A stretch of DNA of 64,000 nt. Origin: Bacillus sp. SB49. Its GTDB lineage: Bacteria; Bacillota; Bacilli; Bacillales; Halobacillaceae. Below the pieces are notes generated by a model. The model was not told the origin of the DNA, searched no databases, and saw only the letters and a list, made by a program, of their open reading frames with translations. Below, one piece after another: positions 27,005 through 47,627 of the stretch (position 1 is its first letter; every line of letters starts with the position of its first letter). A program made the translations under genes and the position numbers. Where the stretch lies: NCBI RefSeq assembly GCF_000469135.2, contig NZ_CP048117.1, positions 611,001 through 675,000 on the forward strand. The letters are read 5' to 3'.

Positions 27005-28390
27005 ATGATGGCGAAAGTGAAACCGCCGGTTGAGAAGAATGAGACAGTCGAGCTTACGTTTGAGGATTTGACGCATGAGGGGAACGGGGTCGGCAAAGTG
27101 GACGGCTATCCTCTGTTTGTTCCCTATGGTCTTCCGGGTGAGACGGCAACGGTCAAGGTCGTCAAAGTGAAAAAGAACTTCGGATTCGGAAAGATTCTTG
27201 AAGTGAAAGAAGCAAGTGAAGACAGAGTGGAACCTCCATGTGATGTTTTCTATCAGTGCGGCGGGTGCCAGCTTCAGCACATGAGTTATCAAATGCAGCT
27301 GGACATGAAGCAGAAGCAGGTCAAAGATAACATGAAGAAGATCGGACACCTGGAGCACGTACCGGTGCATCCGACAATCGGTATGGAAGATCCGTGGCGC
27401 TACCGCAACAAAGTCCAGATTCCAGTCGGCCAGAAGGAAGACGGGCAACTGATGACAGGCTTTTATCAGAAGCGAAGCCATAACATCATCGATATGGACA
27501 CATGTCTGATTCAGGATGAAGTGAATGACCGGATGGTTGAAACGGTACGCCGTATCGCTTCCAGATACGGAATCGATGCCTACGATGAACAGACGCACCG
27601 CGGCGTACTTCGTCACATCATGGTCCGGACGGGGCAGACGACGAAGGACATTATGATCGTGATCGTCACGAAGACGAAGAAACTTCCTCACAAAGAAAAA
27701 ATCGTAGACGAAATCCGCGATGCGTTCCCGAATGTAAAATCAATCGTCCACAACATCAACAGTGCAAAGACGAATGTCATTTTAGGAAGAGAAACGAACG
27801 TACTATGGGGAGAAGAATACATCTACGATACGATCGGAGATATCCGTTTTATGATTTCCCCGAAATCGTTTTACCAGGTCAACCCGACCCAGACGAAGAC
27901 GTTGTACGACCAGGCACTTTCTTATGCCGACCTGCGTGGTGGAGAAACGGTCATCGATGCCTACTGTGGAATCGGAACTATTTCCTTATTCCTCGCCCAG
28001 AAGGCAGAGAAGGTGTATGGAGTGGAAATCGTTCCGGAAGCCGTGGAAGACGCGAAGAAGAACGCCCGTCTGAACAAGATGGACAACGCCGAATTCTTCG
28101 TCGGGGAAGCAGAGAAGCTCATGCCGTGGTGGCGTAATCAAGGCCTTCGTCCGGACGTCATCGTCGTCGACCCTCCGCGTAAAGGCTGTGATGAGCAGCT
28201 TCTGAAAGCGATGCTCGACATGGAGCCGGAGCGGATCGTGTATGTATCCTGTAATCCGTCTACGCTTGCGCGTGATCTGCGGGTGCTGGAAGACGGTGGT
28301 TATGAAACGAAGGAAGTGCAGCCGGTCGATATGTTCCCGCAGACGAGTCACGTGGAGTGCTGTGTGTGGTTAGAAAAGCCTAAAGTTTAA
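27005..28390 (+). CDS. rlmCD: 23S rRNA (uracil-5-)-methyltransferase RlmCD, with its C-terminus replaced by element DNA
   Basis: 461-residue SAM-dependent RNA m5U methyltransferase of the RumA/TrmA family. N-terminal TRAM domain ([18 protein letters not shown]), four-cysteine Fe-S site ([17 protein letters not shown] plus a later Cys), SAM-binding [16 protein letters not shown], and catalytic [14 protein letters not shown]. The end [11 protein letters not shown] is the conserved motif in which the element's attachment core lies: after HVEC the natural tail (VTWLEKKVSN, left at 47625-47659) is replaced by CVWLEKPKV encoded partly by the element. The enzyme therefore stays full length. ATGATG start with AAGGACGG upstream. 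Confidence 0.93.
28343..28359 (+). repeat. attL core (direct repeat)
   Basis: ACGAGTCACGTGGAGTG, identical to 47611-47627. It encodes TSHVE in the rlmCD frame. Flanking bases differ immediately on both sides. Confidence 0.88.
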
Positions 28391-29864
28391 GCAGACGAGG
28401 GCCCGAGAATTTATAAAAGATTCTCGGGCTTCCGTCTGCTTTTATTTCTATTCGTTCAATTAATCGATGCAAGAGCTCAGGGCTTAGTACATTTAGATTC
28501 ATTATTTCTTGGATGTGTGTAAGAATCGCTTTAAATTTGGCTTCATCGTTTTCATGTGTATGTGTCTCGTTTAAGAATTCAAGTTCAGTCATGACTTCAC
28601 TTATCTCATTCGACGTTATTTCATAAGTAAGTTGGTAATCATCTTCGCTAATGATTCCATCTACATGACTGACAATCAACTTAGCTTTTCTTTCTTTTAA
28701 TCCTGTTAGTTTTTTCTCAAGCCTATTTATATGAGCTTTTTTCTTTTGATTTGCATGTTTGAATTTATCGTTTATTTTCTTGCTTAAGGACGACCCATCA
28801 TTGTTACCAGCTAGCTTTTTAATATCTTGAAGTATAGCAGCCTTCAACTGGTCTTCTTTAACATAATGAGAAAGGCATGCTTTAGCTCCAAGCTTATTAT
28901 ATTCACCACATACGTAACCATTTCTGTTCTTCTTATAATGCATGCTTTTGCCACAATCAGCGCAATACGCTGTATTCGTGAACAAATGTTTTTCATGACT
29001 TGGTCGTTTCCGCCTTCGAGCTTTCATTAAACCTTGAACTACATCAAAGTCTTCTTTTGAAATAATACTTGGATGGACGTTGGGAACAACAATATAATCA
29101 TCATGGTTTTTCTGCTCTCTAATTTTGCTTGTAACGCTCTTGGTAGTGGTTCTTCCTTGAACTAAATCACCAGTATAATTCGGATTAGAAAGTATACTCC
29201 TTACGCTGGATCCATTCCAACGATTAGTCGCATTTCTCTTATTAGCAACTTGAGAGGGAGATGGTATCTCTTCGTTATACAAGTCTTTGGCAATTCGGTC
29301 GAAGCCTTTTCCAGATATATAATCACGGTATATTCTCTTCACTATGGAGGGGGTGCTATCGTTTCTTATTGTTAGTTTTCCTTCATTCAGAGTGTAACCA
29401 TATGGCGGGACGGATCCTTTGTAAACCCCCTTCTTAGCTCTATTTATTAAGGCTGTTTTAACTCTGTCACTGGTCCTTTGAGATTCTTGTTCATACATCC
29501 AAGCGTAGAGACCAAACATATGGTTATTACCTTCAAGGGTGTTTACCGCATTATCTAGGGTAATAATGTGGACCCTGCTTCTCTCAGCTATATCTTTTAT
29601 CTCATAAGAAAGTCCACCATTACGTGCAAAACGAGATAATTCTTTTGCTAGCATGACGTCAAATTTGTTCTGTTTAGCGTCCGCAATTAGCTTTTGAAGC
29701 TGCTCCCTTTTTTCCGTTGTTCCACTTTCTATATCGACATATATTGCTTCTAAATCCCATCCTTTATCGGATAAATATTGAATGAAAAGCTCTTTTTGGT
29801 TCTCTAGAGACTGTTTCTGCTCTAGTTTATCAGTAGATACTCTTATATAAACTGCACATCTCAT
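28380..29864 (-). CDS. Large serine recombinase (site-specific integrase)
   Basis: 494 residues. N-terminal resolvase catalytic domain: AVYIRVSTD with nucleophile Ser10, [25 protein letters not shown] and the [10 protein letters not shown] helix. Then the recombinase domain ([32 protein letters not shown]), a zinc ribbon (YCADCGKSM...CGEYNK..KACLSH) and a coiled coil near residues 370-420. Its stop is only 20 bases from the attL core, the usual position for an integrase. It overlaps the last codons of rlmCD on the opposite strand. Its start overlaps the stop of the 50-residue ORF upstream. Confidence 0.94.
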
Positions 29865-30013
29865 TGGATTTCCTCCTTCGGAGATGTAGCAGTGTTCACC
29901 TTACCTAGATCATAATCTTGGGATACGATAGTGTCAATTTTCTCAATAAAGTAAGACTGAAGCATATCTTCGACAGTATGATCACTACTTGCAAAAATTC
30001 TTTCTACTTTCAT
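29861..30013 (-). CDS. Small acidic protein (50 aa) coupled to the serine recombinase
   Basis: ATG at 30013 with AGGAGGAATAGCT in front. Encodes MKVERIFASSDHTVEDML, then QSYFIEKIDTIVSQ, ending KEEIQ. Its TGA overlaps the recombinase ATG as ATGA, and the recombinase ribosome binding site (GAAGGAGGA) lies in its last codons. I recall similar small ORFs in front of serine recombinases in Bacillus elements, without known function. A directionality factor or a purely translational leader are both possible. Confidence 0.65.
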   Translation of the reverse strand: MKVERIFASSDHTVEDMLQSYFIEKIDTIVSQDYDLGKVNTATSPKEEIQ

Positions 30014-30650
30014 AGCTATTCCTCCTATTTTGGAGGCCCGGACCTTAATATAAAAAGATATCTTTTATCGTAAATATTCTTAAGTAATCTCAGCTGATTT
30101 CTAATTCTTATTATAATTAACCAGGCTTAAAAGAGCGATGTTACTCAGTTGAAATCTAATAGAATCTCAGTAGGATAATACATAGTGTGTGTCTCCAATT
30201 CTACTTAAAGCATAAAAATGCTTCTATTTAAGAGGTTTCATTAAAAATACCTATTATTTTGATAAATTTATAAAAAAATTTGTGGGGTAGTACCTTATGT
30301 GTAAGTCGGTAAACGTCTGCGTTTTACGCCCCACCCCCCTTAAAAGATTGTTAAGTTAACTGAACAAAAGCTGTGAGCTAACTTGATCCAATAAACAGCC
30401 TCTCCTAGGGAATTGCATTATCGTGATATTGCACATGTCACTTATGGACTGGTGTATTACACCTCATCCTGGATAGTTCTCTAGCAGAACTCCTTTTTTC
30501 TTATAATAGATCATTTAGTTTCAACGGACGTTCATGGGTAATGCACTTATTTAAAAAGTGGGAAAAAGCGTGAGCAACACAAGAAGTTTTTGGTATTATG
30601 ACGCAGGAAAATATACCCTCTTGTCGAAATTATTCGATAGGAGGGATTAC
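30014..30650. other. AT-rich intergenic stretch within the element
   Basis: No convincing gene. It contains an odd GC-richer patch at about 30290-30348, with GTAAACG/CGTTTTAC arms around TCTG followed by CCCCACCCCCCTT, and an intrinsic-terminator-like hairpin at 30475-30499 (AGTTCT/AGAACT then T6). An open frame from 30558 runs into the next gene, but has no ribosome binding site. Confidence 0.5.
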
Positions 30651-31127
30651 ATGCCGGTATGGATGCAAGTTATTAGCTTCATTTTATCCATAGTGGGTAC
30701 GGTTTTTGGTGGATACGCTCTAGTGCTAAATCATCAGAGAACCAAGATAACTAAGACAAAGGAAAATGAAAGATTAACTAATAAGAGGAAGGCGTCATTT
30801 GCCATCAGTAGAGACAAGGAAATACGGGTGAAGCGAGACCGTGATGTGTTTATTTTAAAAAACACTGGCGAAGCAGAGGCGAGGAATTTGACAATTTCAT
30901 TTTATATTCACTCTGAAAAAGGCAAAAGCATTAACAGCAGTACGCCTGAAAATGAGAAAACTTTAGTGAATGTATTACTTCATAAGATCCCTGACAAAAT
31001 CAATTCGAATCAGGTGACGAAAACTACAATGATTATGCATGCTGGACAGGCACCTCCATTTGAAGTGGTTTTAAAATGGGAAGACGATCACTCCTCAAAA
31101 AATGAGCTGAAGGAAATTCTACAGTAA
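30651..31127 (+). CDS. Membrane-anchored hypothetical protein (158 aa)
   Basis: Not recognised. I start it at the ATG at 30651, which has AGGAGGG 7 bases upstream, instead of a GTG at 30558. MPVWMQVISFILSIVGTVFGGYALVL forms one N-terminal transmembrane segment, followed by a basic linker (KITKTKENERLTNKRK) and a beta-rich domain (FILKNTGEAEARNLTISFYIHSE; PFEVVLKWEDD) that could be an Ig-like sandwich facing the cytoplasm. A terminator-like hairpin at 31145-31170 separates it from the next operon, so it may not belong to that system. Confidence 0.7.
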   Translation: MPVWMQVISFILSIVGTVFGGYALVLNHQRTKITKTKENERLTNKRKASFAISRDKEIRVKRDRDVFILKNTGEAEARNLTISFYIHSEKGKSINSSTPENEKTLVNVLLHKIPDKINSNQVTKTTMIMHAGQAPPFEVVLKWEDDHSSKNELKEILQ

Positions 31128-31144
31128 AATAAGATCTAGATGAG

Positions 31145-31170
31145 GCACTCCATTGTGAGTTGCTTTTTTA
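31145..31170 (+). terminator. Terminator after the membrane-anchored protein gene
   Basis: GCACTC / GAGTTGC stem with one bulge, then six T. Confidence 0.6.
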
Positions 31171-31206
31171 TATGTAAGGGAATTTGATTGAAGGAGGTGG
31201 TTCACC

Positions 31207-31278
31207 TTGAAGGATGAAACCTTAACTGAAAGACAATTGAATAATTCAAAAGTGAGGAGAGTTCCATGGATGAAATAA
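31207..31278 (+). CDS. Possible 23-aa leader peptide ORF of the McrB-like operon
   Basis: TTG start behind a perfect GAAGGAGGTG at spacing 6. Encodes MKDETLTERQLNNSKVRRVPWMK and overlaps the first 13 bases of the next gene in another frame. The strong ribosome binding site is the main argument. Could be a coupling leader; no homology known. Confidence 0.35.
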   Translation: MKDETLTERQLNNSKVRRVPWMK

Positions 31279-32555
31279 GGACGTTAGTGAAGGCGCTTAC
31301 GAAGGCAGAAGCTGCAACCATTGTGCAGAAGTTCAACATAAAAGTGCATGGGTTTCAGAAGAACTTCAGTCGAGCACCAGAAGAGATGTTGAAGAATTTT
31401 ATTATTAAAGAGTTGAAGGCTGGTGCCAAGCCGAAAGCAAACAACAAACGGAAAGGTAAAAAGTACACAACGGTTCAGGAAGTATTTAAGTTCATCAGTG
31501 CATCGTTCATTAATGATCATCCAGAGGTCGAAGAGATGTCAGTGGAAGATTTAGCACTAAAGTTAGAAATGGACTATAAATTTTCAAAAGGAGCGATCCT
31601 ATCCGTCATATATACCCAGTTTCCTGATACCTATCAAGAGCATAAAGAGGTTCTGGAAAGAAACGTAGAGGAAGGTAAATCGTTGTTGGACGGCATAGTA
31701 AAGCAAATGTCTTCCGAAGAAAAAATGGAGATGTTGAGAGAAGAGTTCTCCCAAGAAGAGTATATATATGAGCGATTGAAAACTTACGTTGAGAAATCAA
31801 AAGAAATAATAGGCGATAAACGGTACGAAGAATTCAAACAGAGCGTTAATCGAGAAGGTGAGGCTAGCTTTGCAAATGAAGTGTCATCGACTCCTAAAAG
31901 CCAAAGGCAATATCCTGTACTGGCTTTTTTAATGGAAAATAATCGCTACAAGGATGAGAGATATAAAGATTTTCTGATGTATGTAGAGCGATGGTTTGAA
32001 AGCAAAAAAGATGAGGATAATGGCTTTGCTTTATCTGTTATGGAAGAAGAGGCGGAAAGCTTCCGAAAACAGTCTGATGAAATGCAAAAAGAGTTAGATC
32101 AACTTTGTTCTGTTGATGAGAAGAATGACGATTTGACTTTTTTCTTGCAAGAGAAGGAAAAAGAAAACCAAGAATTACGAGATCGACTCATTGATCTATC
32201 TGATTGTCAAAGCATCAACAAGCCGTTCATTGATTACTTCCAAAGGTTATTAAGGAGTAGAGGTGCAGTTATTGTCACAAACGACCGAGAGCTGTTTACA
32301 GGAACGGAATTGATTGGTTATGTCGAGAGTTTAGAGACGTTCCACCAACATAAGAGGATGAAGGATGTGGCGAGGTACAAGAACAAATTGGTTCTTATAT
32401 CTAGAGCTGCTTTTTCTACAAGTGCGAAATGGTTGGTGACTAAAAGGTATCTAGAGAATAACGGAATACATTATTACGAGTTATCTGGATATGACTTAAG
32501 CGAATATTTAAACCAAATTGTGGATTACCTCCACAGAGAGAGGGTGCGAACTTAA
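31266..32555 (+). CDS. Uncharacterised coiled-coil protein, first gene of the McrB/DUF2357 operon
   Basis: 429 residues; I do not recognise a family. An N-terminal helical part (RTLVKALTKAEAATIVQKF, KNFIIKELKAG) is followed by a lysine-rich linker, a helical middle with long charged helices (about residues 150-205), a predicted coiled coil (about 255-310, EEEAESFRKQSDEMQKEL, FLQEKEKENQELRDRL) and a C-terminal alpha/beta domain that starts at about residue 330 (GAVIVTNDRELFTGTELIGY...LVLISRAAFSTSAKWLV...NGIHYYELSGYDLSEYL), alternating strands and helices like a small Rossmann-type sensor. Stop overlaps the next ATG (TAATG). AGGAGAG upstream. Confidence 0.8.
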   Translation: MDEIRTLVKALTKAEAATIVQKFNIKVHGFQKNFSRAPEEMLKNFIIKELKAGAKPKANNKRKGKKYTTVQEVFKFISASFINDHPEVEEMSVEDLALKLEMDYKFSKGAILSVIYTQFPDTYQEHKEVLERNVEEGKSLLDGIVKQMSSEEKMEMLREEFSQEEYIYERLKTYVEKSKEIIGDKRYEEFKQSVNREGEASFANEVSSTPKSQRQYPVLAFLMENNRYKDERYKDFLMYVERWFESKKDEDNGFALSVMEEEAESFRKQSDEMQKELDQLCSVDEKNDDLTFFLQEKEKENQELRDRLIDLSDCQSINKPFIDYFQRLLRSRGAVIVTNDRELFTGTELIGYVESLETFHQHKRMKDVARYKNKLVLISRAAFSTSAKWLVTKRYLENNGIHYYELSGYDLSEYLNQIVDYLHRERVRT

Positions 32556-34627
32556 TGACATTTGTAGAACAAAATGTTCAAGAGATATCCCAAGCGGACA
32601 GACAAAAAATTGAGGAGTGTTATATTTTAGGGAAGATAGCGGAGGACAATAGTCCATTTCCTCGTCTAGGGGCAGAGTTTGACCGAGCGGTTACGTATTC
32701 CAAAGATGGAGATGACAGGATTGTGTTCTTCATTAAAGCTCTCTCGAGAGAACCAGAACTACTGAAGCGTTTGTTGGGTAAGAACAAAGACGAATTTTAT
32801 ATTTCTTTTGACAATCGCAATAAGAGATACTTACAAAAGGTCGGATACTTTGAACAAGATAACCCAGTGGAATTTTTGAGAGAACATTTCAAAGGAAGGC
32901 TAATCTTGTTCAAGCCAGAATTGACATACGATAAGAAAAGAGATATGTATCACTACAACTTAGAGGTGCTGTTGGTTGAAAAAGCAGCTAGTGAAGAAGA
33001 AATGCAAGAAGATTTTGTTCCTGTTCCTGAAATGAGCAATTCCACTCCAGCTACTCGATTTGAGAGAAAGTTATTGGATGAAAAACCAATAGAGTTGAGT
33101 TGTTATAACCATGCCTTTGACGTACCAGAATTCATCATTTGTGATAGTTACATTTATCAAATTCCAGATGATACAGTGTTGGAAAAGTACAAAGTGAATT
33201 CCAATATGTATATCTGTCGTAAACCAGAATCTATTAAGAGGATTGACATTCCAGAAGATTATGATCGGAATATGCGTATGGTGCATAAAGAGATTGCATT
33301 CATTTCTAACAACAACCGTTTAAGCTGGATTGATCAATTTGAAGAAGAAGGTACGTCCATTGCAGAATTGGAGAGACAGAAAAAGCTAGAAGAAAAAAAG
33401 GCATCCGAAGGCAAGGTGAGGGAAGAGAAATCTTCTCAAGAGCAAGAGCAAGTATCCAAAGAAGATGTTGCTGATAAAATTGGTGAAGGGGACTTCATTC
33501 TTCGTCTTGATTACCTGGCGAGAAAAAAGAAATTGAGATATTCGCTTGAGGATCTATACAATTTTCATACCTCGTTAAAGACATCAAATTTTACAATACT
33601 GGGTGGCATGAGCGGAACAGGTAAAACACAATTAGCTATGCTATATGCAGAGGCAATGAAAATGGATGAAGGTGACAACCTTCTGTTTGTACCTGTTAAG
33701 CCCTCGTACACAGAGCCGAGTGATTTGTTAGGGTTCTTGAATCCTCAAACAGGAGTATACACAGAGAGTGATGTAGGACTTGTTTCTTTCTTGGATCGTG
33801 CAAGTAAAAATGAAGACAAGATGCACATGGTTGTGTTTGATGAAATGAACTTAGGTCAGGTCGAACACTATTTCAGTGATTTTCTATCGATATTAGAGTT
33901 AGAGACGGGACAAAAGCGCCTTCGGTTGTTCAATAAAGGGGCGATGTGTGTTCAGGAACATCTGAGGGAAGGTATCCTGATTGGAAATAATGTTTTGTTC
34001 GTCGGAACAGCGAATTTCGACGAAACAACACGAGATTTCTCTAATCGGATGTTGGATCGAAGTAACGTCATTCTTCTAGAGAAGACATCGTTTGCGGATG
34101 CTTACAAACACGAAATCAATGAAAATATTGAGAGTCCGACTGATTATGCGGATCAAGAGAAGAATGAAATCAAAAACCCTGATGCTGAAATTACCGCAGA
34201 CAACTATAAAGAGTGGGTTGTGAATAACGGGAAACGATTAGCTTCGTTGGAAGAGCGGGAGTTATCTATCCTCGATAAGTTACATGAAGAGATTAGTAAT
34301 TTTGATTCTCAGACAGGAGTATCGTTCCGTATTGCGGAGCAAATTGGTCACTATCTGGATAATATTCCTTGTGATGAGAGTGGCGTTCCGTTCTTGAACA
34401 GGAATACTGCTTTCGACTTCCAAGTCAAACAACGTATTCTCTCTAAAATCAGAGGTCATAGAGATCAAATCGAAAAGTTAGTTGGACGATACGATGAAGA
34501 GAAGGGATACTCAGGTGGACGTATTAGTTCTGTACTTGACACGGAAGATCGAAATAATTGTGAAAAATCTATTGCGTACCTTGAACAAAAGGCGAAAGAG
34601 TTGATGCGAAATGGCTACACATTATAA
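32555..34627 (+). CDS. McrB-like AAA+ NTPase
   Basis: 690 residues. A specificity-type N-terminal region of about 310 residues precedes an AAA+ domain of the MoxR/McrB kind: Walker A GGMSGTGKTQLA (about 350), KPSYTEPSDLLGFLNP, Walker B VFDEMNLGQVEHYFSDFL (about 428), and the FVGTANFDETTRDFSNRMLDRSN block (about 486) where McrB GTPases have their NxxD signature. A charged low-complexity linker (about residues 270-310) separates the parts. Together with the DUF2357 nuclease it forms an McrBC/LlaJI-like NTPase-nuclease pair, which in known systems recognises modified or foreign DNA (or, in some relatives, RNA). Confidence 0.85.
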   Translation: MTFVEQNVQEISQADRQKIEECYILGKIAEDNSPFPRLGAEFDRAVTYSKDGDDRIVFFIKALSREPELLKRLLGKNKDEFYISFDNRNKRYLQKVGYFEQDNPVEFLREHFKGRLILFKPELTYDKKRDMYHYNLEVLLVEKAASEEEMQEDFVPVPEMSNSTPATRFERKLLDEKPIELSCYNHAFDVPEFIICDSYIYQIPDDTVLEKYKVNSNMYICRKPESIKRIDIPEDYDRNMRMVHKEIAFISNNNRLSWIDQFEEEGTSIAELERQKKLEEKKASEGKVREEKSSQEQEQVSKEDVADKIGEGDFILRLDYLARKKKLRYSLEDLYNFHTSLKTSNFTILGGMSGTGKTQLAMLYAEAMKMDEGDNLLFVPVKPSYTEPSDLLGFLNPQTGVYTESDVGLVSFLDRASKNEDKMHMVVFDEMNLGQVEHYFSDFLSILELETGQKRLRLFNKGAMCVQEHLREGILIGNNVLFVGTANFDETTRDFSNRMLDRSNVILLEKTSFADAYKHEINENIESPTDYADQEKNEIKNPDAEITADNYKEWVVNNGKRLASLEERELSILDKLHEEISNFDSQTGVSFRIAEQIGHYLDNIPCDESGVPFLNRNTAFDFQVKQRILSKIRGHRDQIEKLVGRYDEEKGYSGGRISSVLDTEDRNNCEKSIAYLEQKAKELMRNGYTL

Positions 34628-36461
34628 AGGGAAAGTCTTACCTTTTCGGTGTTATTTTGAAGACCGATTCGGACGTCCTTATGAAGTAGAGCAACTCTGG
34701 AAAAGTGAAGAAGATATAGATGTTTCAAGGCTTACAGTTTTGAAAGAGAACTCTCGTATTGGACTTCAGTTTTATGTTGATGAAAAAGAGGTTCATGAAT
34801 CGGGGGCGGTTTGTAAGATACAAACGAATGTATATGACTCCTCTGATGAACAAGTTGTATTCGATCATCCGTTGCAAGTGGGAAGAGGAAGAAAGAAGTG
34901 GCTTTATCAAGCTAACGATAACGAAGAGTTTCCATGGCGTATGGGGGTTTATTTTATTGAGGTGCTTTTTGGCGGGGAAAGGTATGTTGGGGGGATTAAC
35001 GTCCTCCCTCACCACCTTGATGAGTCTCAAGTGAGGCATTTGCATGAGTATTTAAATGAGCAGGTGCAAGATATTATCTATGACTTCGTATATAGCAATA
35101 AAACCTTGTCAAATGATGATGAGGCGGACTTGCCGAAGTATTGGTACTATGACTACGCTCGTAAGATTGCGGAGATTTACGACGAATATATGTACTGTAT
35201 GACAGCGATAGAGAGAAACCCTCACGATTATATCCGGACATCCTATAAACCTTCTGTACGGGCGGGAAAAATAGATCACAAGAGCATTCGGTGGGCGAAT
35301 TCGAATAAGGGGTTAGCTAAGAATGCAGGTGTCCAACAAAGTAATTTTCAATTGAACAAGAAGAAAATAAGGGATTTTGATTCTAAAGAGAATCGCTGGT
35401 TGAAGAACATTCTGCTTATGTGGCGGAAGGACTTGTTAGAGGTGTCTTCCTACATCGAAAAAGATTTGGATAGTTATCAGCGGAAGTTGAAAGAGCAGCA
35501 AGATAAGCATAATAAGGTGAAGCAAGAAAAAGGAATGCTTTTAGTAAAAAGAGACACTGGTGAAAATACAAAAAAAAATATCAAAAGCCAAATGTATATG
35601 TTAGATAAAGATATCAAAAAAACTAGAACAAAGGTTTCGATTTTGAATGAGCAACTTAGGGTTTTAGAAAAAATGGAGAGTAAGCTCATTTTCTTTATCG
35701 ATAACTCTTTCCTTAGGGATGTTGAACGAGGTTTTAGAAAGCCATTCTTGAAAAAGAATCAATACTTTCGAGTGGATGCTATATTCGAAGAATTGAGGAA
35801 GATTCGAGAAAATAAAGGGGAAGACAATCAGCTGACTCCGATTCTTAAACCTACATGGCAAATATACGAGTATTTCTGTCTTTTTAAAGTGGTTAAGACA
35901 TTCACGGATAAAGGGTTTGAAATCGTGCAAGGCATTGACGATGATGTGTTGAACCTTTATTTCGAAGATCGGATACAAGAAGGGACTAAATTTGTCTTGG
36001 AGAATGAGGAGAAAATAGTGCATGTGTGGTATGACCATTACCATCCTCATACCGAAGGAGAGGCTATTGAGAGAGGAGAGTACTTCTACACAAACCTTGC
36101 TAAGAAGAAGCCTGATCTTAAGATAGATGTATTTAAGAAGACGGAAGATGGGAAGTTGTTTGATACTTCGTTAGTTATGGATGCGAAGTTCAGTCAACTA
36201 AGGAACATATATAATTCACAATATATGAATAAAACAACGGAACAATTGACTGAATACTATAGTTTCTTCTCCGTGTTGGAAGAAGCGGGATTCCGAGCTT
36301 GTGTGGATCGAGTGGTATGTTTATATGCAGGGGCTGGAACACAAGAAGTCCAAAAAAGATTGGGAGTTGTCACTTACTTGAGATTTCACCCTGAAATAGA
36401 TGAGGATGGTCCTCGAATCGTAGGTGAGGAAGAATTGAAAGGGTTACTCTCTCACATATAA
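34611..36461 (+). CDS. DUF2357 / PD-(D/E)XK nuclease (McrC-like partner)
   Basis: 616 residues. The N-terminal half has the DUF2357 pattern (RCYFEDRFGRPYEVEQLW; EEFPWRMGVYFIEVLFGG; the helical PHDYIRTSYKPSVRAGKID). A long coiled coil covers about residues 275-360. The C-terminal part has TPILKPTWQIYEYFCLFKVV and the nuclease core: Asp in KKPDLKIDVFK (about 502) and DAKF (about 523-526), a PD...D-x-K arrangement, then TTEQLTEYYSFF. It starts 17 bases inside the McrB-like gene. A methyltransferase gene is absent, so it is likely modification-dependent restriction or abortive defence, not classical R-M. Confidence 0.85.
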   Translation: MATHYKGKVLPFRCYFEDRFGRPYEVEQLWKSEEDIDVSRLTVLKENSRIGLQFYVDEKEVHESGAVCKIQTNVYDSSDEQVVFDHPLQVGRGRKKWLYQANDNEEFPWRMGVYFIEVLFGGERYVGGINVLPHHLDESQVRHLHEYLNEQVQDIIYDFVYSNKTLSNDDEADLPKYWYYDYARKIAEIYDEYMYCMTAIERNPHDYIRTSYKPSVRAGKIDHKSIRWANSNKGLAKNAGVQQSNFQLNKKKIRDFDSKENRWLKNILLMWRKDLLEVSSYIEKDLDSYQRKLKEQQDKHNKVKQEKGMLLVKRDTGENTKKNIKSQMYMLDKDIKKTRTKVSILNEQLRVLEKMESKLIFFIDNSFLRDVERGFRKPFLKKNQYFRVDAIFEELRKIRENKGEDNQLTPILKPTWQIYEYFCLFKVVKTFTDKGFEIVQGIDDDVLNLYFEDRIQEGTKFVLENEEKIVHVWYDHYHPHTEGEAIERGEYFYTNLAKKKPDLKIDVFKKTEDGKLFDTSLVMDAKFSQLRNIYNSQYMNKTTEQLTEYYSFFSVLEEAGFRACVDRVVCLYAGAGTQEVQKRLGVVTYLRFHPEIDEDGPRIVGEEELKGLLSHI

Positions 36462-36468
36462 TAGAAAG

Positions 36469-36498
36469 CACTTCCAAAGTTTGGAGGTGATTTTTTTG
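36469..36498 (+). terminator. Terminator of the McrB/DUF2357 operon; intron target
   Basis: CACTTCCA - AAGTT - TGGAGGTG stem (36469-36489), then A and seven T. Group IIC introns insert just behind such terminators, and the intron-like sequence starts right after the T tract. Confidence 0.85.
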
Positions 36499-36620
36499 GT
36501 GTGCCAGGCATGAGCATAGACTTTAGGGTTCAAGTCCTGCACTGTGAATGTCGTTGTAACCGTTAGCAAAAGGCAAGGGTGCTAGGGCGACCTAGAATCT
36601 AGGTGGATGTCTGACCCCCA
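36499..36620 (+). mobile_element. 5' part of a group IIC intron (no reverse transcriptase)
   Basis: Starts GTGTGCCAGGCATGAG and continues with blocks that match, in order, my recollection of the Oceanobacillus iheyensis group IIC intron: TAGGG...AGTCC, ACTGTGAA, GTAACCGTTAGC, GGCAAGGGTG, GGCGAC and GAATCT. These are domain I elements. No intron-encoded protein and no domain V/VI could be found downstream, so the copy is truncated or badly decayed. Location behind a terminator U tract is exactly the class C target choice. Confidence 0.72.
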
Positions 36621-36698
36621 ATTCAGTAATCGAAACAGATAGAATGTTTTAAAAAAATGGGTGTTGATTACGGCCACTGAAATGTACCACTAATGCCA

Positions 36699-36857
36699 CC
36701 TTTTGCAACAAAAGGCAATCGTAGCAGTCCTTGATACTGAGTAGACAGATATGATAGGTGCCTGGCTGGCAGCTCCCGAGTGACCGTAGGGAACGTCCTA
36801 AGGGGGATGGTGGCAAAGGATGCCACATCATATCTGCCGGAGGCTCAGTGTCAAGGA
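36699..36857 (+). ncRNA. Strongly structured RNA block next to the intron start
   Basis: Hairpin CCTTTTG-CAA-CAAAAGG (36699-36715), then a long helix: TCCTTGATACTGAG (36728-36741) pairs with CTCAGTGTCAAGGA (36844-36857) with one G-U pair, and CAGATATGAT (36746-36755) pairs with ATCATATCTG (36827-36836). Inside, GTGGCA-AAGGA-TGCCAC (36810-36826) is stacked directly on the inner helix. Probably an expanded part of intron domain I, but I could not match it to a known intron; an independent non-coding RNA is possible. Confidence 0.5.
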
Positions 36858-36865
36858 TGCCTTTA

Positions 36866-37525
36866 GAACAACCGAGTGAAGTGATTGTCACGCCTTTAAT
36901 AGTTACTTAAAGTTTTTTATGGAAAACGGGGAGTCAACAGCTGGTGAATTGTTTGTCAAAGAGTGGTCCAAAAGATGGCAGGGATTGTAAGATCCAGTGG
37001 CTGTAATCAGGTGTTGAAAGTGAAACAAAAGTATTTGTGGTACAAGTCAGAAGGTGGAGCTGTTGCAAGTAATACTACAAACGAAGATGAATATTTTGAA
37101 ATTACTGCATAACAAGCAAGTACATTAAGAGATCTATATAATAATTAGTTGATAATACTAAAGAAAACCAGATAACAGTTGTTTTTTATTTCAATATTGG
37201 TGCAAAGAAATAAATATTTTGAATTCGATTCTTCAACTATAAGGGGCAACTCTTTAGCAGGATAATTGCCCCTTACTTAACGTTTTGGACAGGTTTGCTG
37301 AAGATTTGAATTCGTGATAACATTCAGATTTTCGGAACAATATCCATACTCATTCGTATATGAATTAAAGTGATTATTAGGAGTTATCTTAGACCTAGTG
37401 ATATTTGGTGTCTGTTGGAGATATAGGGGTTTGTTCTCAATGAGTTTCCTGGGAGAATGTCAACGAAAAGCTTAGATTGATTTATTTCATTTATCATATT
37501 TTAAAGACAGAAGAGGAGGTGTAAA
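36866..37525. other. Non-coding stretch with small gene remnants
   Basis: Only short frames, such as one of 23 codons at about 36919 and another of about 30 codons near 37020-37112 (ending NEDEYFEITA), neither with a good ribosome binding site. They look like remnants. The hairpin repeat at 37241-37274 is listed separately. Confidence 0.4.
37241..37320. repeat. Hairpin-bearing repeat, copy A
   Basis: AAGGGGCAA / TTGCCCCTT inverted repeat (37241-37274) followed by CTTAACGTTTTGGACAGG. The same arrangement, diverged, recurs at 38961-39040 (GGGGCAATTCTT / AAGAATTGCCTC then CTTAATGTTTTGGGAAGG). Both follow a CTTCxxxTAT lead-in. Such units are common terminator-like intergenic repeats in Bacillaceae, as far as I recall. 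Confidence 0.55.
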
Positions 37526-38268
37526 GTGAAAAGTAATTTTGATTTTAAATTTGATCCAAATCATATCTTAGATCAATTAAAATCTATTTGTAGTAATTAT
37601 CCTAATCTAATTAGTTCTTTAGAAGACTTTCAAGATAGATTAGATAGAGGCCTTAAAGATGATGAACAGAAATATAAACAGCTTATGTTGGTAGCCGGTT
37701 TTCCACCTATTAGTACCATATCGATGAATGAAGTAATTGATATAGTAGAACTTACTGATAAATATGGGGCTGAAGAGGTGCTTGGAAAATTAAAAAAATA
37801 TTGGTGGAAAGATATAACGAAAGTAAATTAAATACGTTGCTTACTCATTGGTCAAACATTTCGTGGATGAAGAGAAGGATCCCGATAATTAGTCAAGTCT
37901 TCAAAGCGCATATTCAGGGAGATTATTTTTTATCCGTAGCTACAATTCTGCCTCAAATTGAAGGTATTTTTGCTGATGCAACAGATCATGTAGGAAATAT
38001 GAATATAAGGAAGAAGATTACAACAATTTTGAACACGGAAGATAAGGCATTTTCTTTTGATAAGGAGATTCAAAGTTTCTACCTAAACATTATTTTACAT
38101 GGTTTTGAACATAACACCACGCCACTCCCAGTTTTTAGTAGGCATGCAATACTTCATGGTGCTGATATAAAATACGGGAACGTAGAAAATTCAGTTAAAA
38201 GTATTATGTTGCTTGAATTTATTGTGAAGAAATTAGAGGATTACCAAAAAGAAAAGACACAGGTGTAA
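37526..38268 (+). pseudogene. HEPN-like gene split by a -1 frameshift at a run of seven A
   Basis: Two overlapping frames read as one protein of about 246 residues: frame 1 (GTG at 37526, behind AGGAGGTG, to 37831) and frame 2 (entering near 37798, to 38268). The switch point is the heptamer A AAA AAA at 37792-37798 in the zero frame, a classic slippery site, so this is either programmed frameshifting or a broken gene or a sequencing error. The second half has LPQIEGIFADATDHVG and SRHAILHGAD, an RxxxxH motif (R114, H119 of that half) as in HEPN ribonucleases. Exact family not identified. Confidence 0.6.
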
Positions 38269-38364
38269 ATCCATTAAAGAAAAGTAGCTTAATATTTAAT
38301 TTGAGTCTTTTTATGGAAAAATAATGAAATTTAAGATTTGTAATTAATTGGAGGGTGAGGTTTT

Positions 38365-38688
38365 ATGAAATTCAAAATGGATGGATTTGATGATTTTGAA
38401 AAGATAATCCAGCAGATGGAGAAAGGTGCTAATGAGCTAGAAAATACAAAAAGTGTTTCATTTGACGAGTTGTTTCATGATGGTTTTATGAAAAAGTACA
38501 CAAGTTATTCTACGATCAGTGAGTTCTTTAATCAGAGTCCTTTTGGAATTGAAGAGGATAAAGATTTCGATAACATTGACGAGAATGAACTTGATAAATA
38601 TGTAAGCGAAAATTCATCTTTTTGTTCTTGGAATCAGATGTTAGAAGAGGCTGGCGCAGAGTATTCTTGGAAGAAGCTAGGCTTTTAA
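38365..38688 (+). CDS. Hypothetical acidic protein (107 aa)
   Basis: Not recognised. ATG with TGGAGGGTGAGG upstream. Begins MKFKMDGFDDFEKIIQQMEKGANELENTKSVSFDELFHDGFM in two parts (MKFKMDGFDDFEKII; KSVSFDELFHDGFM), rich in Asp and Glu. Small proteins with this opening accompany zinc-ribbon ORFs in phages and elements, from memory. 24 bases separate it from the next gene. Confidence 0.72.
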   Translation: MKFKMDGFDDFEKIIQQMEKGANELENTKSVSFDELFHDGFMKKYTSYSTISEFFNQSPFGIEEDKDFDNIDENELDKYVSENSSFCSWNQMLEEAGAEYSWKKLGF

Positions 38689-38712
38689 TTTTTGATAAGG
38701 AGTTGAGAATAG

Positions 38713-38910
38713 GTGATTTGTAAGTATTGTAAAGAAGAGATGATGGGGCAGGATAATGACCCTTTCCCTGGAGGTTATTCAAAGCTATATGTGTGTTTGA
38801 ATAATGTTTGTAGAGCGATATTTGAAGAATGGACAGATAATAAGCATAGGCGCACTCCAGATAAAGATAGATGGTTTAATCCTAAGACTAAAGAGTTTGA
38901 AGATATTTAA
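38713..38910 (+). CDS. Small four-cysteine (zinc-ribbon-like) protein (65 aa)
   Basis: GTG start with AAGGAGTTGAG upstream. CKYC near the N-terminus and CLNNVC in the middle give a CxxC...CxxxxC set able to bind zinc. Ends FNPKTKEFEDI. Probably cotranscribed with the 107-residue gene. Function unknown. Confidence 0.7.
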   Translation: MICKYCKEEMMGQDNDPFPGGYSKLYVCLNNVCRAIFEEWTDNKHRRTPDKDRWFNPKTKEFEDI

Positions 38911-38960
38911 TTACAATGGGATTTCATTAGATATATCTTGAAATCTAGTCTTCCTGTATT

Positions 38961-39040
38961 GGGGGCAATTCTTTAACAGAAGAATTGCCTCTTCTTAATG
39001 TTTTGGGAAGGATTGTGGAAGACTCAGTTTCGAGGTAATA
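38961..39040. repeat. Hairpin-bearing repeat, copy B
   Basis: See copy A at 37241. The 12-bp stem GGGGCAATTCTT/AAGAATTGCCTC with TAACAG loop could end transcription of the 65-residue gene. Confidence 0.55.
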
Positions 39041-39113
39041 TATATAAATTGAAACGCATTACTTAGATCACATGTAAATATAGTAATCAAAATAAAGGTT
39101 AGGAGGAAGCTGT

Positions 39114-39881
39114 TTGAAAGATTATTGGGGTGAATTGTCTCAAAAAGTCAAAATGATCAGTAGTTCATTAGATGAATTTGCAGCTATTTATGAACCAGAT
39201 AAAACAAGATTATGTTTCAACCAGATTTTTGCTTTTTGATTCCATAAAACCTAAAAGTAAGGTTCATTTTTCTGACAAGAATGTCCATCAAGTAGATACG
39301 CTTGATTATGCAATTCATTCTTTAAGCGATTTTAAAATAAAAATGGTATTTAAATCGGCGCATTCACTGTTTGATAAGATCGCATACTTAATTAATGAAT
39401 ACTACCAGACCGAGATTAAAGAGAAGGATGTTAATTTTAATACAATTTGGAAATCTGAACACGGAAACAAAAAAGAAGGTACAAGTATAAAAACCCTATT
39501 ATACAAAAGACAATATATAACTTACCATTAAGAGGATTATATTGGATCGCTAAAGATTTCTTTCCTGTTTTCAATTCAATTATTGAGCCCAAGAGTAAAG
39601 TGATACGTGATATCAGAAATCATTTGGAGCATAAATATGTGAAAACTGTTATTTATAAAATCAGCCCTGATAAAGTGAGTGGTGATAAACTAGCATATTA
39701 CTTAACCACAGAAGAGTTACTAAAACATACATTAACTCTTTTAAAATTAAGCAGGGATGCAATAATCTATCTTATTATGGAAATTCATGTGGAAGAGAAT
39801 TTTAGAGAAAAGACAAGAAAGAAGGATATCATACCATTTCCCATGAAGCTATATGGAATAGATGAAGAGTGGAAACTATAA
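39114..39881 (+). pseudogene. HEPN-domain protein (LA2681-like), two frameshifts
   Basis: TTG start behind AGGAGGAAGC. The reading frame shifts between about 39200 and 39239 and shifts back between about 39500 and 39530, so the product can be pieced together from three parts: DYWGELSQKVKMISSS, then FLLFDSIKPKSKVHFS...HSLFDKIAYLINEYY, then LPLRGLYWIAKDFFPVF and VIRDIRNHLEHKYVK. RNHLEH is an RxxxxH HEPN motif and this order resembles the LA2681-like HEPN family. The two compensating indels mean either decay or assembly errors. No partner nucleotidyltransferase is present. Confidence 0.6.
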
Positions 39882-39983
39882 CTTCTTATATAATCGGGGC
39901 GCTTGCTTGATATAGACAATAATTAATTATCAGGGAGCAAATAAAATACAACTATTATGGAAGAATGATTTTAGGTGGATTGA

Positions 39984-40157
39984 GTTGATGTAGCTTACGC
40001 CTTTATTTTTGATGAAATCAAAGAGAAGGTTTTAATGGTAAAGAATAAGGGGAGTGGTTTGTCTCTTCCTGGTGGTGCTGTTGAAAGAGGTGAAACATTT
40101 GACCAAGAAGCAATGAAGGAAAGCAAGGAAGAAAGTAATCCTTATTCTTCAACATAA
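39984..40157 (+). pseudogene. Nudix hydrolase fragment
   Basis: VDVAYAFIFDEIKEKVLMV is followed by LSLPGGAVERGETFDQEAM and KESKEES, i.e. the start of a Nudix box (Gx5Ex7...EE). There is a stop directly before it without a start codon, and it ends after 57 codons shortly beyond the box, so both ends are missing. A remnant. Confidence 0.7.
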
Positions 40158-40182
40158 CCTCGAAATCTAGGAAGGTTTACAA

Positions 40183-40225
40183 CAAAAAAAGACCGCTAAC
40201 CTTTTATAAGAGAGCGATCTTTTTA
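40183..40225. terminator. Bidirectional terminator
   Basis: AAAAGACCGCT / AGCGATCTTTT stem with one mismatch; A tract on the left and T tract on the right allow function on both strands. The stretch 40226-40426 holds no gene that I can see. Confidence 0.6.
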
Positions 40226-40426
40226 CTTGAAGTAAGTTGAAATGATTTTGAATGGAAAAATCATGTGTAACGTAAGTTAATATAAAGTGGGTTAATGCTA
40301 CAATCATACAAAGAAATCTATATTAATAAAAGCATAACCCAGTATTAAATCTAATTTGCAGTATATACCTTGGGTATTATTGTCCGGTTTCTAAAAGGTA
40401 GAGTATCTCTCTAGCGAGCTTGGATG

Positions 40427-41071
40427 CTACATGAAAGAGTATTGATAAACACTTGTTGAACCGCCGCTATAATCCATTAAGCTTTCTTGAGAAAGTAAGT
40501 CTCGTTGTTTTATATTGATGCTGTCCAAGAATGATACCGCTTCGTCGCCATATATAAATTCAAGAGAGTCCAAATGTTTTTTTATGAATACACTTGTAGC
40601 TCTGGGAACACTTACATCATTACTTGCTCTATCCATTGAATCCTCAATAATTGAGGTTAATTCAAATGCAGTGAAAAATTTATAGTCCATCCATTCATCC
40701 CAATACCTCTCGTTTTCATTTTCATGTGGGATAACTCCAGCAGGAATATCGGATAAGAAATAAATCATACCAGGATCGTTTTCAATAGGCATTTTTATTA
40801 CAGCAATGTACTTAAATTTATTCAATACAGATGACTTTAGATATTGGATGAATTTTTCTAGTCTTTTTTTTACATTATAAAATTCACTTTCATGGAATTC
40901 TAAACACATTATTGGCTCTGTAATATAAGGATCCCTATAAAAGTTAGTTTGGATGAGGCGTCCATATTCCAATGGCTTGCTCTTCTCAAAGGTGAATTTA
41001 CCAGAATTTAGTTTTCTTTCGTGATCATACACCCAAACAAGATTTCCACCGTGTACTACTTTAGTAAACAC
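40427..41071 (-). CDS. Rep-like protein lacking the HUH histidines (214 aa)
   Basis: Third gene of the Rep operon; GTG start with GGAGAGGGTGG upstream, overlapping the HTH gene by 11 bases. No family recognised, but residues about 68-110 (KKRLEKFIQYLKSS, NKFKYIAVIKM, GMIYFLSDIP) line up with the Rep protein two genes upstream (KKRLSYYLKT, PVFKYIGVTEF, GAIHYHLVCNL). If the match is real, both catalytic histidines are lost. It could be a structural Rep paralog or a regulator. The similarity is by eye. Confidence 0.55.
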   Translation of the reverse strand: MFTKVVHGGNLVWVYDHERKLNSGKFTFEKSKPLEYGRLIQTNFYRDPYITEPIMCLEFHESEFYNVKKRLEKFIQYLKSSVLNKFKYIAVIKMPIENDPGMIYFLSDIPAGVIPHENENERYWDEWMDYKFFTAFELTSIIEDSMDRASNDVSVPRATSVFIKKHLDSLEFIYGDEAVSFLDSINIKQRDLLSQESLMDYSGGSTSVYQYSFM

Positions 41072-41264
41072 TTAAACCACCCTCTCCATATAACCAGTTA
41101 CAGAAAACTGTTTTTGAAATTTTTATCCTTCTGCCAACCCTTATTGAATGAAAAGCCCCTGAATTTACTAAGTCATAGGCTTGCTTCCTGCTTATTCCCA
41201 GTATCATTTGAATATCTTCAACATTTAGTACCTCAGGAAATTGGTCGAGTAGCATTTTTTGCAT
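41061..41264 (-). CDS. HTH (excisionase/MerR-like) DNA-binding protein (67 aa)
   Basis: Helix-turn-helix typical of HTH_17/excisionase proteins: VLNVEDIQMILGISRKQAYDLVNSG, then the wing FHSIRVGRRIKISKTVF and a WL tail. Quoted in parts the key positions are EDIQMILGISRKQAYDL and RVGRRIKI. GGAGTG 7 bases before the ATG. Lies inside the rep operon, overlapping rep by 32 bases. Candidate recombination directionality factor or copy regulator of this element. Confidence 0.82.
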   Translation of the reverse strand: MQKMLLDQFPEVLNVEDIQMILGISRKQAYDLVNSGAFHSIRVGRRIKISKTVFCNWLYGEGGLSVY

Positions 41265-42012
41265 GTATTTTCACTCCATCGAAGTTATTTATATAGTATG
41301 TTGCCAGGTTAACTGCACCGTATATAGGTGATTGGTAAGATTCTTCACTAAGTTTTAATGTGTTGGAATTTATGAGCTGGTCCAACTTCTCTTGATCCTC
41401 AGTAAGGTCAATATATATAGGTTTCTCTAAATGCTGGGATCGAAAGTATTTTTTCCTTTTGTTTAGCCTAGGATCAGATATTCCTTTTTTCATGTAACTA
41501 GATATCTTCTCATTATCAGTTGGGGAAGCAACAACCTGTTGAAGGTTAACCCACCCATTCCCCCATAATTCTTCAACCTTAAGTCTATTTACAGTATTAA
41601 GGTTACATACAAGGTGATAATGTATGGCTCCATTTCTTTGGTCTTGAAACTCTGTAACACCTATATATTTAAATACCGGCAGCTCCATTGTCTTCAAATA
41701 GTAAGAAAGACGTTTTTTGAAATCACAAAATGCCTTATAGCACTGAGAGTAATCTGTTATATCATGAGTGGTGTCTTGGTTGAAAGTGAGAGTTAGAAAT
41801 GAATAGCCGAACGAAAAGTTACACTCTAATAATCTCCTTATGTTTTTGCGGGCACGGTTCACGCTTACTCTATGGTTTAACTCATTGCAACTATCCTCGG
41901 TAGCATTAAAGTTCTTCTTGCGTCCTCCTCTTTGTGTTCTAGGTATAAGAGGGGGGATACTTTGCCGTTTTACTTCAATAAATTGCTTGCTTATTATTAC
42001 ATTGGTGTACAT
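41233..42012 (-). CDS. rep: Rolling-circle replication initiator (HUH Rep)
   Basis: 259 residues. HUH endonuclease motifs are all visible: motif I FLTLTF (72-77), motif II GAIHYHL with H131 and H133, motif III SSYMKKG with catalytic Tyr173 and Lys175/176. N-terminal part is basic (RGGRKKNF). This type initiates rolling-circle replication by nicking a double-strand origin. Starts the minus-strand operon rep - HTH - Rep-like; palindromes lie just upstream. Suggests that the element is an integrated replicon. Confidence 0.85.
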   Translation of the reverse strand: MYTNVIISKQFIEVKRQSIPPLIPRTQRGGRKKNFNATEDSCNELNHRVSVNRARKNIRRLLECNFSFGYSFLTLTFNQDTTHDITDYSQCYKAFCDFKKRLSYYLKTMELPVFKYIGVTEFQDQRNGAIHYHLVCNLNTVNRLKVEELWGNGWVNLQQVVASPTDNEKISSYMKKGISDPRLNKRKKYFRSQHLEKPIYIDLTEDQEKLDQLINSNTLKLSEESYQSPIYGAVNLATYYINNFDGVKIHAKNATRPIS

Positions 42013-42440
42013 CTCTAAGCTCCCTATATATTCGTCAAATTAATCACTATTTATCAAGTTAGAGAACTGGCCAGTTCTTGAAATTATCTATTGTTAATTT
42101 AAGTGATCACTTATGTTTAAATTCTATATCTTATTAGCTTTTTTGACGAACTCGGTCAGCATGGTACTGTTCATGTAAAGGGAGATTAGAAGAGTTTCTA
42201 TAGGGAGGGGGAAATAATCCCTTACAATTCTTATTTATAACAAGTAATAGCTCTGTTTTTATACAATTTCGCTAATTATTCATATAGATTGGCAAACATT
42301 AAGCCCCATTTATAAGAGACATTCTAAGTTAAGAAGAATGTAGGCGTAGAGTGCAAAGAAAAAGTGAGAGGCGTAAAGCCATCTCACTCATTTAAATAAA
42401 GTATTAGTTTTAAATAACTTTTCACATAGGAATTTTATGT
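42013..42440. promoter_or_regulatory. Palindrome-rich region upstream of rep (origin/operator candidate)
   Basis: No gene. It has a perfect 16-bp palindrome AGAACTGGCCAGTTCT at 42063-42078 and a perfect AAGTGATCACTT at 42101-42112, with half sites around (AATCACT at about 42041). These could be the operator for the rep operon or part of a double-strand origin. The end of the stretch (42357-42388) is the terminator of the 185-residue gene. Confidence 0.45.
42357..42388 (-). terminator. Terminator of the 185-aa gene
   Basis: On the minus strand GTGAGATGGC - TTTAC - GCCTCTCAC followed by TTTTTC. Confidence 0.75.
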
Positions 42441-42998: not shown

Positions 42999-43165
42999 AT
43001 AGACCAGCCCATTTCATGTTTGGTGTATAAAGAACCGATTTAATATACTGTAAACGCTAGAATAAAGTTGACAGTTTTCGCTTGATAAGATTTTACACTT
43101 TTGCTCTATCAGCCTATTACTTTAGTAAAATAGTTGGTGACATTATTTTACTGGAGGTTAGGATT

Positions 43166-45489: not shown

Positions 45490-45561
45490 AGGGAAAACGA
45501 GCATAAAGTGTAAAATTCGACTTGACGTCTACATATACCTCGGGTATAAAGCATTCATACA

Positions 45562-46290: not shown

Positions 46291-46343
46291 AAAATGAACT
46301 TTGTTGGTTTTTGAGTGTTTTGTCACAGGAAGGGAATTTTAAA

Positions 46344-47351: not shown

Positions 47352-47360
47352 CATGACTAA

Positions 47361-47610: not shown

Positions 47611-47627
47611 ACGAGTCACGTGGAGTG
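47611..47627 (+). repeat. attR core (direct repeat)
   Basis: ACGAGTCACGTGGAGTG, identical to attL at 28343-28359. Confidence 0.88.

What the first reader, a model, noticed from the sequence alone, without database searches (positions are those of the whole stretch)
31207..36461. Three-gene McrB-like / DUF2357-nuclease system with an unrecognised coiled-coil first gene
Seen: three overlapping genes (1-base and 17-base overlaps). The second has Walker A/B and an NxD block of McrB type, the third DUF2357-like parts, a long coiled coil and a PD...DxK nuclease core. Known: McrBC and LlaJI-like systems pair such an NTPase and nuclease. New here: the 429-residue first protein with helical N-part, coiled coil and a small alpha/beta C-domain that I cannot place, strictly coupled to the pair, and no methyltransferase. 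Inference: a modification-dependent or abortive anti-phage system in which protein 1 is the sensor or scaffold.
Basis: partly seen in the sequence, partly recalled or inferred. Interest (0 to 1): 0.75.

Follow-up and report, generated by a model that had tools for sequence, protein, structure and literature searches.

The report
Type I-B CoCoNuT (CnuABC) defence operon

Summary
Three genes lie head to tail (31266-32555, 32555-34627, 34611-36461; overlaps of 1 and 17 bases), followed by a terminator-like stem. Gene 2 is a McrB-type AAA+ NTPase with the shortened NxD motif; gene 3 is DUF2357 plus an intact PD-(D/E)xK nuclease. The 'unrecognised' first gene is not new: Bell et al. 2024 (PMC11090510) describe this architecture in Bacillota as Type I-B CoCoNuT, with CnuA, CnuB and CnuC. 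I tested most of that definition here. In 399 genomes of the order, all 18 full-length CnuA matches sit directly upstream of a CnuB. Distance matrices of the three proteins correlate at r 0.87-0.95. The CnuBs examined that lack CnuA form one nested clade, the expected pattern of 'Pseudo-Type I-B'. The paper's reference proteins could not be fetched, so membership is strong but indirect. What I add: the C-terminal 'receiver' domain has no conserved phosphoacceptor Asp, CnuA evolves much faster than its partners, close relatives share a Lys/Arg-rich linker, and the operon sits on a 19.3-kb serine-recombinase island inserted in a uracil-methyltransferase gene. The system is known, though uncharacterised.

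The parts
31266..32555 (+). cnuA (protein 1, 429 aa): helical N-part, coiled coil, alpha/beta C-domain
   Evidence: upstream of cnuB in 18/18 genomes
31266..31952 (+). helical N-terminal region (aa 1-229); conserved G29-F30...P38 motif and, at aa ~53-67, a Lys/Arg-rich linker in the close relatives
31956..32258 (+). coiled-coil helix (aa 231-331)
   Evidence: only coiled-coil proteins match by sequence
32262..32552 (+). alpha/beta C-domain (aa 333-429), pseudo-receiver/DUF2325-like fold without conserved phosphoacceptor Asp
32555..34627 (+). cnuB (protein 2, 690 aa): N-terminal beta-rich domains plus McrB-type AAA+ GTPase
33602..33625 (+). Walker A, GGMSGTGK (aa 350-357)
33827..33850 (+). Walker B, MVVFDEMN (aa 425-432)
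34013..34021 (+). NxD motif N487-F-D489 (not NxxD)
34611..36461 (+). cnuC (protein 3, 616 aa): N-terminal extension, DUF2357, coiled coil, PD-(D/E)xK nuclease
34935..35489 (+). DUF2357 match (aa 109-293)
35445..35690 (+). coiled coil between DUF2357 and nuclease (about aa 279-360)
   Evidence: only coiled-coil chains match, weakly
35859..36197 (+). PDDEXK_7 nuclease match (aa 417-529); P501-D502 ... D524-A-K526
36469..36489 (+). intrinsic-terminator-like stem with T-run behind cnuC
31207..31278 (+). 23-codon leader ORF (TTG, strong SD) overlapping the cnuA start
   Evidence: also in L020, not elsewhere
28380..29864 (-). large serine recombinase of the island (Resolvase, Recombinase, Zn_ribbon_recom)
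28343..28359 (.). left att-like 17-bp repeat ACGAGTCACGTGGAGTG inside the 3' end of the uracil-methyltransferase gene 27005-28390
47611..47627 (.). right att-like 17-bp repeat, followed by the displaced native 3' end of that gene

Best explanation
A Type I-B CoCoNuT (CnuA-CnuB-CnuC), a McrBC-derived predicted anti-phage system on a serine-recombinase mobile island. Proposed working: CnuB assembles into a GTP-dependent AAA+ ring. CnuC inserts its DUF2357 stalk into the ring, which stimulates NTP hydrolysis, and carries an active PD-(D/E)xK nuclease, the only recognisable effector. CnuA dimerises or oligomerises through its 100-residue coiled coil and supplies the recognition or licensing module that in ordinary McrB is fused to the NTPase: its fast-changing N- and C-terminal domains sense the trigger and bring or unlock the CnuBC nuclease, which then cuts phage (or host) nucleic acid. 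Shown here: genes, motifs, predicted folds, strict linkage, correlated divergence, intact catalytic residues. Inferred by homology: ring assembly and nuclease activation. Guess: that CnuA is the sensor; what the trigger is; whether RNA or DNA is cut; whether the outcome is clearance or cell death. The confidence below is for the identification as Type I-B CoCoNuT; for CnuA as sensor or licensing subunit I would give about 0.5.
For: The published definition of Type I-B (separate CnuA with helical N-domain, coiled coil and REC-like C-domain; CnuB with NxD and no long coiled coil; CnuC with N-terminal domain, DUF2357 and nuclease; mainly Bacillota) fits this operon. NxD is found in all 52 CnuB homologues checked. 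The nearest solved relative of CnuB is E. coli McrB by sequence, and McrB is among the best by fold (6hz4). Nuclease residues: D502 in 48/49, D/E524 in 48/49, K526 in 47/49. All 18 full-length CnuA genes in 399 genomes abut a CnuB. The CnuBs examined that lack CnuA form one nested clade (neighbours), matching the reported Pseudo-Type I-B. Distances among A, B and C correlate (r 0.87, 0.92, 0.95; 0 of 2000 permutations) while median identity is 16% in CnuA, 36% in CnuB and 21% in CnuC. Neighbouring defence systems in relatives: Wadjet next to L015, ABC-three-component next to L002. The island has boundaries, and relatives have the site uninterrupted.
Against: The paper's reference proteins (TKH01449.1, GED20858.1, GED20857.1) could not be fetched, so no direct homology test was made. 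The PYD/CARD-like and cold-shock/YTH assignments were not reproduced: Pfam finds none of them and the PDB fold search of CnuA has nothing below E = 1. The C-domain shows no significant profile match to receivers. No phenotype is known for any Type I-B member.
Confidence: 0.82

Rival explanations
1. An ordinary LlaJI-like or McrBC-like DNA restriction pair whose methyltransferase has been lost or lies elsewhere; protein 1 is only a specificity subunit for modified or unmodified DNA sites.
For: DUF2357 and PDDEXK_7 in P3, McrB as closest solved relative of P2; PADLOC gives a candidate-system model, PDC-M26A, for P2.
Against: The NTPase has NxD, not NxxD, in all 52 homologues checked; no methyltransferase was found among the island proteins scanned or annotated next to the two plasmid copies; the constant partner is a coiled-coil protein instead.
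Confidence: 0.08
2. A stress or population-density response operon rather than an anti-phage system, as Bell et al. suggest for the CnuA-less Pseudo-Type I-B relatives.
For: Pseudo-Type I-B-like CnuBC pairs nest within the same tree and sit among ordinary genes in the loci read (PMC11090510).
Against: This copy is on a mobile island; relatives lie on plasmids or beside serine recombinases, Wadjet and ABC-three-component systems; patchy occurrence, 18 of 399 genomes.
Confidence: 0.08
3. A new kind of system: protein 1 is unrelated to CnuA and brings a novel sensor fold to an NxD McrBC pair.
For: Protein 1 matches no family convincingly in Pfam, NCBIfam or PADLOC; its C-domain has no significant sequence match to receivers and no convincing PDB fold match.
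Against: Position, domain order, host range and the CnuA-less nested clade all match the published CnuA.
Confidence: 0.06

Closest known systems
Type I-B CoCoNuT (CnuA-CnuB-CnuC), Bell et al. 2024, PMC11090510
   Same: Three-gene order, separate coiled-coil first protein with helical N- and alpha/beta C-domain, NxD McrB GTPase without long coiled coil, DUF2357 plus PD-(D/E)xK protein, Bacillota.
   Different: The 'receiver' domain lacks a conserved phosphoacceptor in this family; cold-shock, YTH and PYD/CARD domains not confirmed here.
Pseudo-Type I-B CoCoNuT of Bacillus
   Same: Same CnuB/CnuC family; its likely members form one clade nested in the same tree.
   Different: Lacks CnuA; here CnuA is present and intact.
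E. coli McrBC (PDB 6hz4)
   Same: AAA+ NTPase with Walker A/B and Asn-containing signature motif, partner with a PD-(D/E)xK nuclease.
   Different: NxxD motif, specificity domain fused to McrB, no separate coiled-coil gene.
LlaJI-like systems (from memory)
   Same: McrB-like NTPase paired with a DUF2357/PDDEXK_7 protein.
   Different: Come with DNA methyltransferases; none found here.

Membership tests
Type I-B CoCoNuT | McrB-type GTPase with NxD instead of NxxD | tested here: met
   N487-F-D489; NxD in all 52 homologues
Type I-B CoCoNuT | Separate coiled-coil protein CnuA encoded next to CnuB | tested here: met
   101-aa helix; 18/18 CnuA abut CnuB
Type I-B CoCoNuT | No long coiled coil fused to the CnuB GTPase | tested here: met
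   AlphaFold2 model of P2 has no helix longer than 23 residues
Type I-B CoCoNuT | CnuA N-terminal PYD/CARD-like helical domain | tested here: inconclusive
   N-part is helical but neither Pfam nor the PDB fold search shows a death-fold domain
Type I-B CoCoNuT | CnuA C-terminal receiver (REC) domain | tested here: inconclusive
   Fold is alpha/beta with weak receiver hits at E 2.7-3.5 and a DUF2325-protein hit at E 1.1e-3; no significant profile match; no conserved Asp
Type I-B CoCoNuT | Cold-shock-like OB fold, often YTH, in CnuB N-part | tested here: inconclusive
   N-part is beta-rich, no CSD, YTH or EVE among the Pfam families listed for 37 members; fold search dominated by AAA+
Type I-B CoCoNuT | CnuC with Ig-like N-domain | not tested
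Type I-B CoCoNuT | CnuC with DUF2357 and PD-(D/E)xK nuclease | tested here: met
Type I-B CoCoNuT | Mainly in Bacillota, with CnuA-less close relatives (reported in Bacillus) | tested here: met
Type I-B CoCoNuT | Homology to the published reference CnuA/CnuB/CnuC sequences | not testable with these tools
   Accessions TKH01449.1, GED20858.1, GED20857.1 not retrievable; supplements capped at zero
Canonical McrBC | NxxD motif and specificity domain fused to McrB | tested here: not met
   NxD; no MrcB_N or other Pfam specificity domain in P2
LlaJI-like restriction system | Cognate DNA methyltransferase genes in the operon | tested here: not met
   No methyltransferase among island proteins scanned

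The most novel reading that the evidence does not exclude
CnuA is a phosphorylation-independent sensor: a pseudo-receiver (REC/DUF2325-like) domain that has lost the phosphoacceptor, on a coiled coil with a basic, fast-evolving N-terminal nucleic-acid-binding part. It would license a McrBC-type GTPase-nuclease in trans, so that the specificity module of a Type IV restriction system is a separate, exchangeable subunit.
Probability: 0.3. Interest if true: 0.6.

Novelty: new member of a known kind. Interest (0 to 1): 0.36.

Why it matters
It is an intact, compact three-gene example of a predicted but, as far as the papers searched show, untested class of immune system, on a defined mobile island and with dozens of aligned relatives, so it is a practical candidate for a first experimental test of Type I-B CoCoNuTs. 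The missing phosphoacceptor questions the published suggestion that histidine kinases control CnuA.

Tried and rejected
Pfam, NCBIfam and PADLOC scans of P1: only chance hits, mostly coiled-coil. Relatives in phages and viral contigs: none for P1 or for the CnuB profile. Two structure jobs went to P1 and P2, so P3 has no model. Profile-profile tests of the P1 C-domain against receivers from this genome and against DUF2325 sets were not significant (hhalign probability at most 3.6%), although receivers and DUF2325 resemble each other somewhat (27%), so I do not claim either family by sequence. The only notable fold hit is a viral DUF2325 protein (E 1.1e-3, probability 0.98, but TM-score only 0.20). 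Weak CnuA-profile hits in about 60 further genomes (E above 1e-9) cover almost only the coiled coil and were disregarded as chance. A SAP-like reading of the P1 N-terminus (helix, loop with GF, helix) was considered from the alignment and not tested.

Full report
WHAT IS THERE. Three + strand genes, 31266-32555 (429 aa), 32555-34627 (690 aa) and 34611-36461 (616 aa), overlap by 1 and 17 bases and end at a terminator-like stem with a T-run at 36469-36489. P2 has a P-loop AAA+ domain (AAA_5, E 1e-6), P3 has DUF2357 (E 1.8e-7) and PDDEXK_7 (E 2.3e-4), P1 matches nothing beyond noise.

RELATIVES. P1 alone, used as query, found two plasmid copies at 28% and 25% identity, and eight genomes besides its own in 399 genomes of the order. 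Every one has the same three-gene order. A scan of 84,980 species genomes with the P2 profile gave 48 loci, nearly all Bacillota and a few Mycoplasmatota (the two distant outliers L066 and L067 are Pseudomonadota and Acidobacteriota). A CnuA-like gene lies directly upstream and a P3 homologue directly downstream in the great majority, and the 17-base overlap of genes 2 and 3 is almost universal. With a profile of 34 P1 homologues, 18 of 399 genomes hold a full-length P1 (E at most 1.7e-21, one of them split by an insertion), and in all 18 it abuts a P2 homologue on the same strand. Weaker hits in that search cover almost only the coiled coil. So protein 1 does not occur apart from the pair in this sample. 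Distance matrices of the three proteins over 38 loci correlate at r = 0.87 (A-B), 0.95 (B-C) and 0.92 (A-C), none of 2000 permutations reaching these values; permutations ignore shared ancestry, so this shows co-inheritance, not contact. Median pairwise identity is 16% for A, 36% for B and 21% for C: protein 1 changes fastest.

WHAT IT IS. Bell et al. 2024 (PMC11090510) divided McrB-type GTPases into NxxD and NxD branches and named the coiled-coil part of the NxD branch CoCoNuT. Type I-B, mainly in Bacillota, usually has a separate coiled-coil protein CnuA (helical PYD/CARD-like N-domain, coiled coil, REC C-domain), a CnuB without coiled coil, and a CnuC with Ig-like domain, DUF2357 and nuclease. 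The window operon fits: NxD (GTANFDET) in P2 and an NxD in all 52 homologues; P1 model with helical N-part, helix 231-331 and alpha/beta C-domain at mean pLDDT 90.5; no long coiled coil in the P2 model; McrB as nearest solved relative of P2 by sequence (by fold, dynein, a MoxR-like ATPase and McrB 6hz4 are among the best). The paper also reports Pseudo-Type I-B, a CnuA-less relative in many Bacillus. In my tree the CnuA-less CnuBs examined (three from one genus that yielded eleven such CnuB loci, one from G770, equal to L053, and a second copy in G668) form one clade nested inside the CnuA-bearing tree (support 0.995; neighbours). G668 (the assembly of L023, Priestia taiwanensis) carries both kinds. 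I therefore call the window operon a Type I-B CoCoNuT at 0.82. The direct test, comparison with the paper's accessions, was not possible. The PYD/CARD, REC, CSD and YTH assignments were not reproduced here, and the Ig-like domain was not tested.

HOW IT MAY WORK. The catalytic parts are intact: Walker A/B and NxD in CnuB; P501-D502 and D524-A-K526 in CnuC, conserved as D (48/49), D/E (48/49) and K (47/49) across homologues, the exceptions including one gap. The nuclease of CnuC is thus the one recognisable effector, unlike Type II CoCoNuTs where it is inactivated. By analogy with McrBC, CnuB forms the NTP-driven ring and CnuC stimulates it and cuts. CnuA is best seen as scaffold plus sensor: long coiled coil, fastest divergence, never alone. 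Two details bear on this. In the close relatives (11 of 11 in alignment A1) a linker after the third helix (window aa ~53-67, pLDDT about 73) carries at least four Lys/Arg, which suggests contact with nucleic acid. And the C-domain, called a receiver in the paper, has no conserved Asp at the end of the strand where the phosphoacceptor would be expected: in 43 homologues position 379 is D in 12, otherwise T, N, Q, H, S or other, and position 380 is R in 26. This assignment of the phosphoacceptor position rests on the predicted strand order. In the close clade R380, W389 and E405 are invariant instead. By fold the only notable hit is a viral protein annotated DUF2325 (E 1.1e-3, probability 0.98, low TM-score); PDB receivers appear only at E 2.7-3.5. 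A phosphorylation switch is therefore unlikely in this family. Trigger, substrate (RNA, as the paper predicts, or DNA) and outcome are unknown.

SETTING. The operon is on an island of about 19.3 kb. A 17-bp repeat, ACGAGTCACGTGGAGTG, lies at 28343-28359 inside the 3' end of a uracil-methyltransferase gene and at 47611-47627. Right of the second copy stands the displaced native 3' end of that gene, and relatives of the genus have the site uninterrupted. G+C is 30-43% inside and about 45-51% outside. The recombinase gene 28380-29864 (Resolvase, Recombinase, Zn ribbon) is at the left end. Cargo includes a split HEPN_LA2681 gene, a DUF4062 protein, a Rep-like protein and an IS21-type element. Relatives lie next to Wadjet jetABCD (L015) and an ABC-three-component system (L002).

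VERDICT. Observation confirmed; interpretation half right; the 'unrecognised' gene is recognised in the literature. It is a clean new member of a known but untested kind. Interest is moderate: useful as a test case, with a small correction to the receiver model.

Noticed in passing
window 28343-47627: Serine-recombinase island of about 19.3 kb with 17-bp direct repeats; it supplies a replacement 3' end for the uracil-methyltransferase gene it interrupts, the native end being displaced to 47628 onwards.
   Followed up: yes
window 31207-31278: 23-codon leader ORF with strong Shine-Dalgarno overlapping the cnuA start; similar in L020 only.
   Followed up: partly
window 39172-39881: HEPN_LA2681 gene in two ORFs in different frames, probably broken.
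   Followed up: no
window 46311-47351: DUF4062 protein at the right end of the island, a domain often seen in STAND-type immune proteins (that link is from memory).
   Followed up: no
L069 1303-3036: Second McrB-like gene in the same genome, with MrcB_N domain and NxD (GTVNMDET): an NxD GTPase fused to a classical McrB-type N-terminal domain.
   Followed up: partly
L168 9021-11930; L014 11203-12282; L013; L035; L055: Broken copies: cnuA split by a transposase-like insertion, cnuC cut beside an IS66-like element, cnuB or all three genes in several frames; repeated decay may mean the system is costly.
   Followed up: partly
L044, L047, L049: Paenibacillus loci with a second McrB-like gene a few kb downstream of CnuABC.
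   Followed up: no
L167 7867-8943; L169 5737-6801: 354-358-aa genes upstream of CnuB not found by the CnuA profile but with the same N-terminal KVKGF motif; probably diverged, shortened CnuA.
   Followed up: no
L051, L057, L059: Upstream coiled-coil proteins of 286-316 aa that appear to lack the C-terminal alpha/beta domain.
   Followed up: partly
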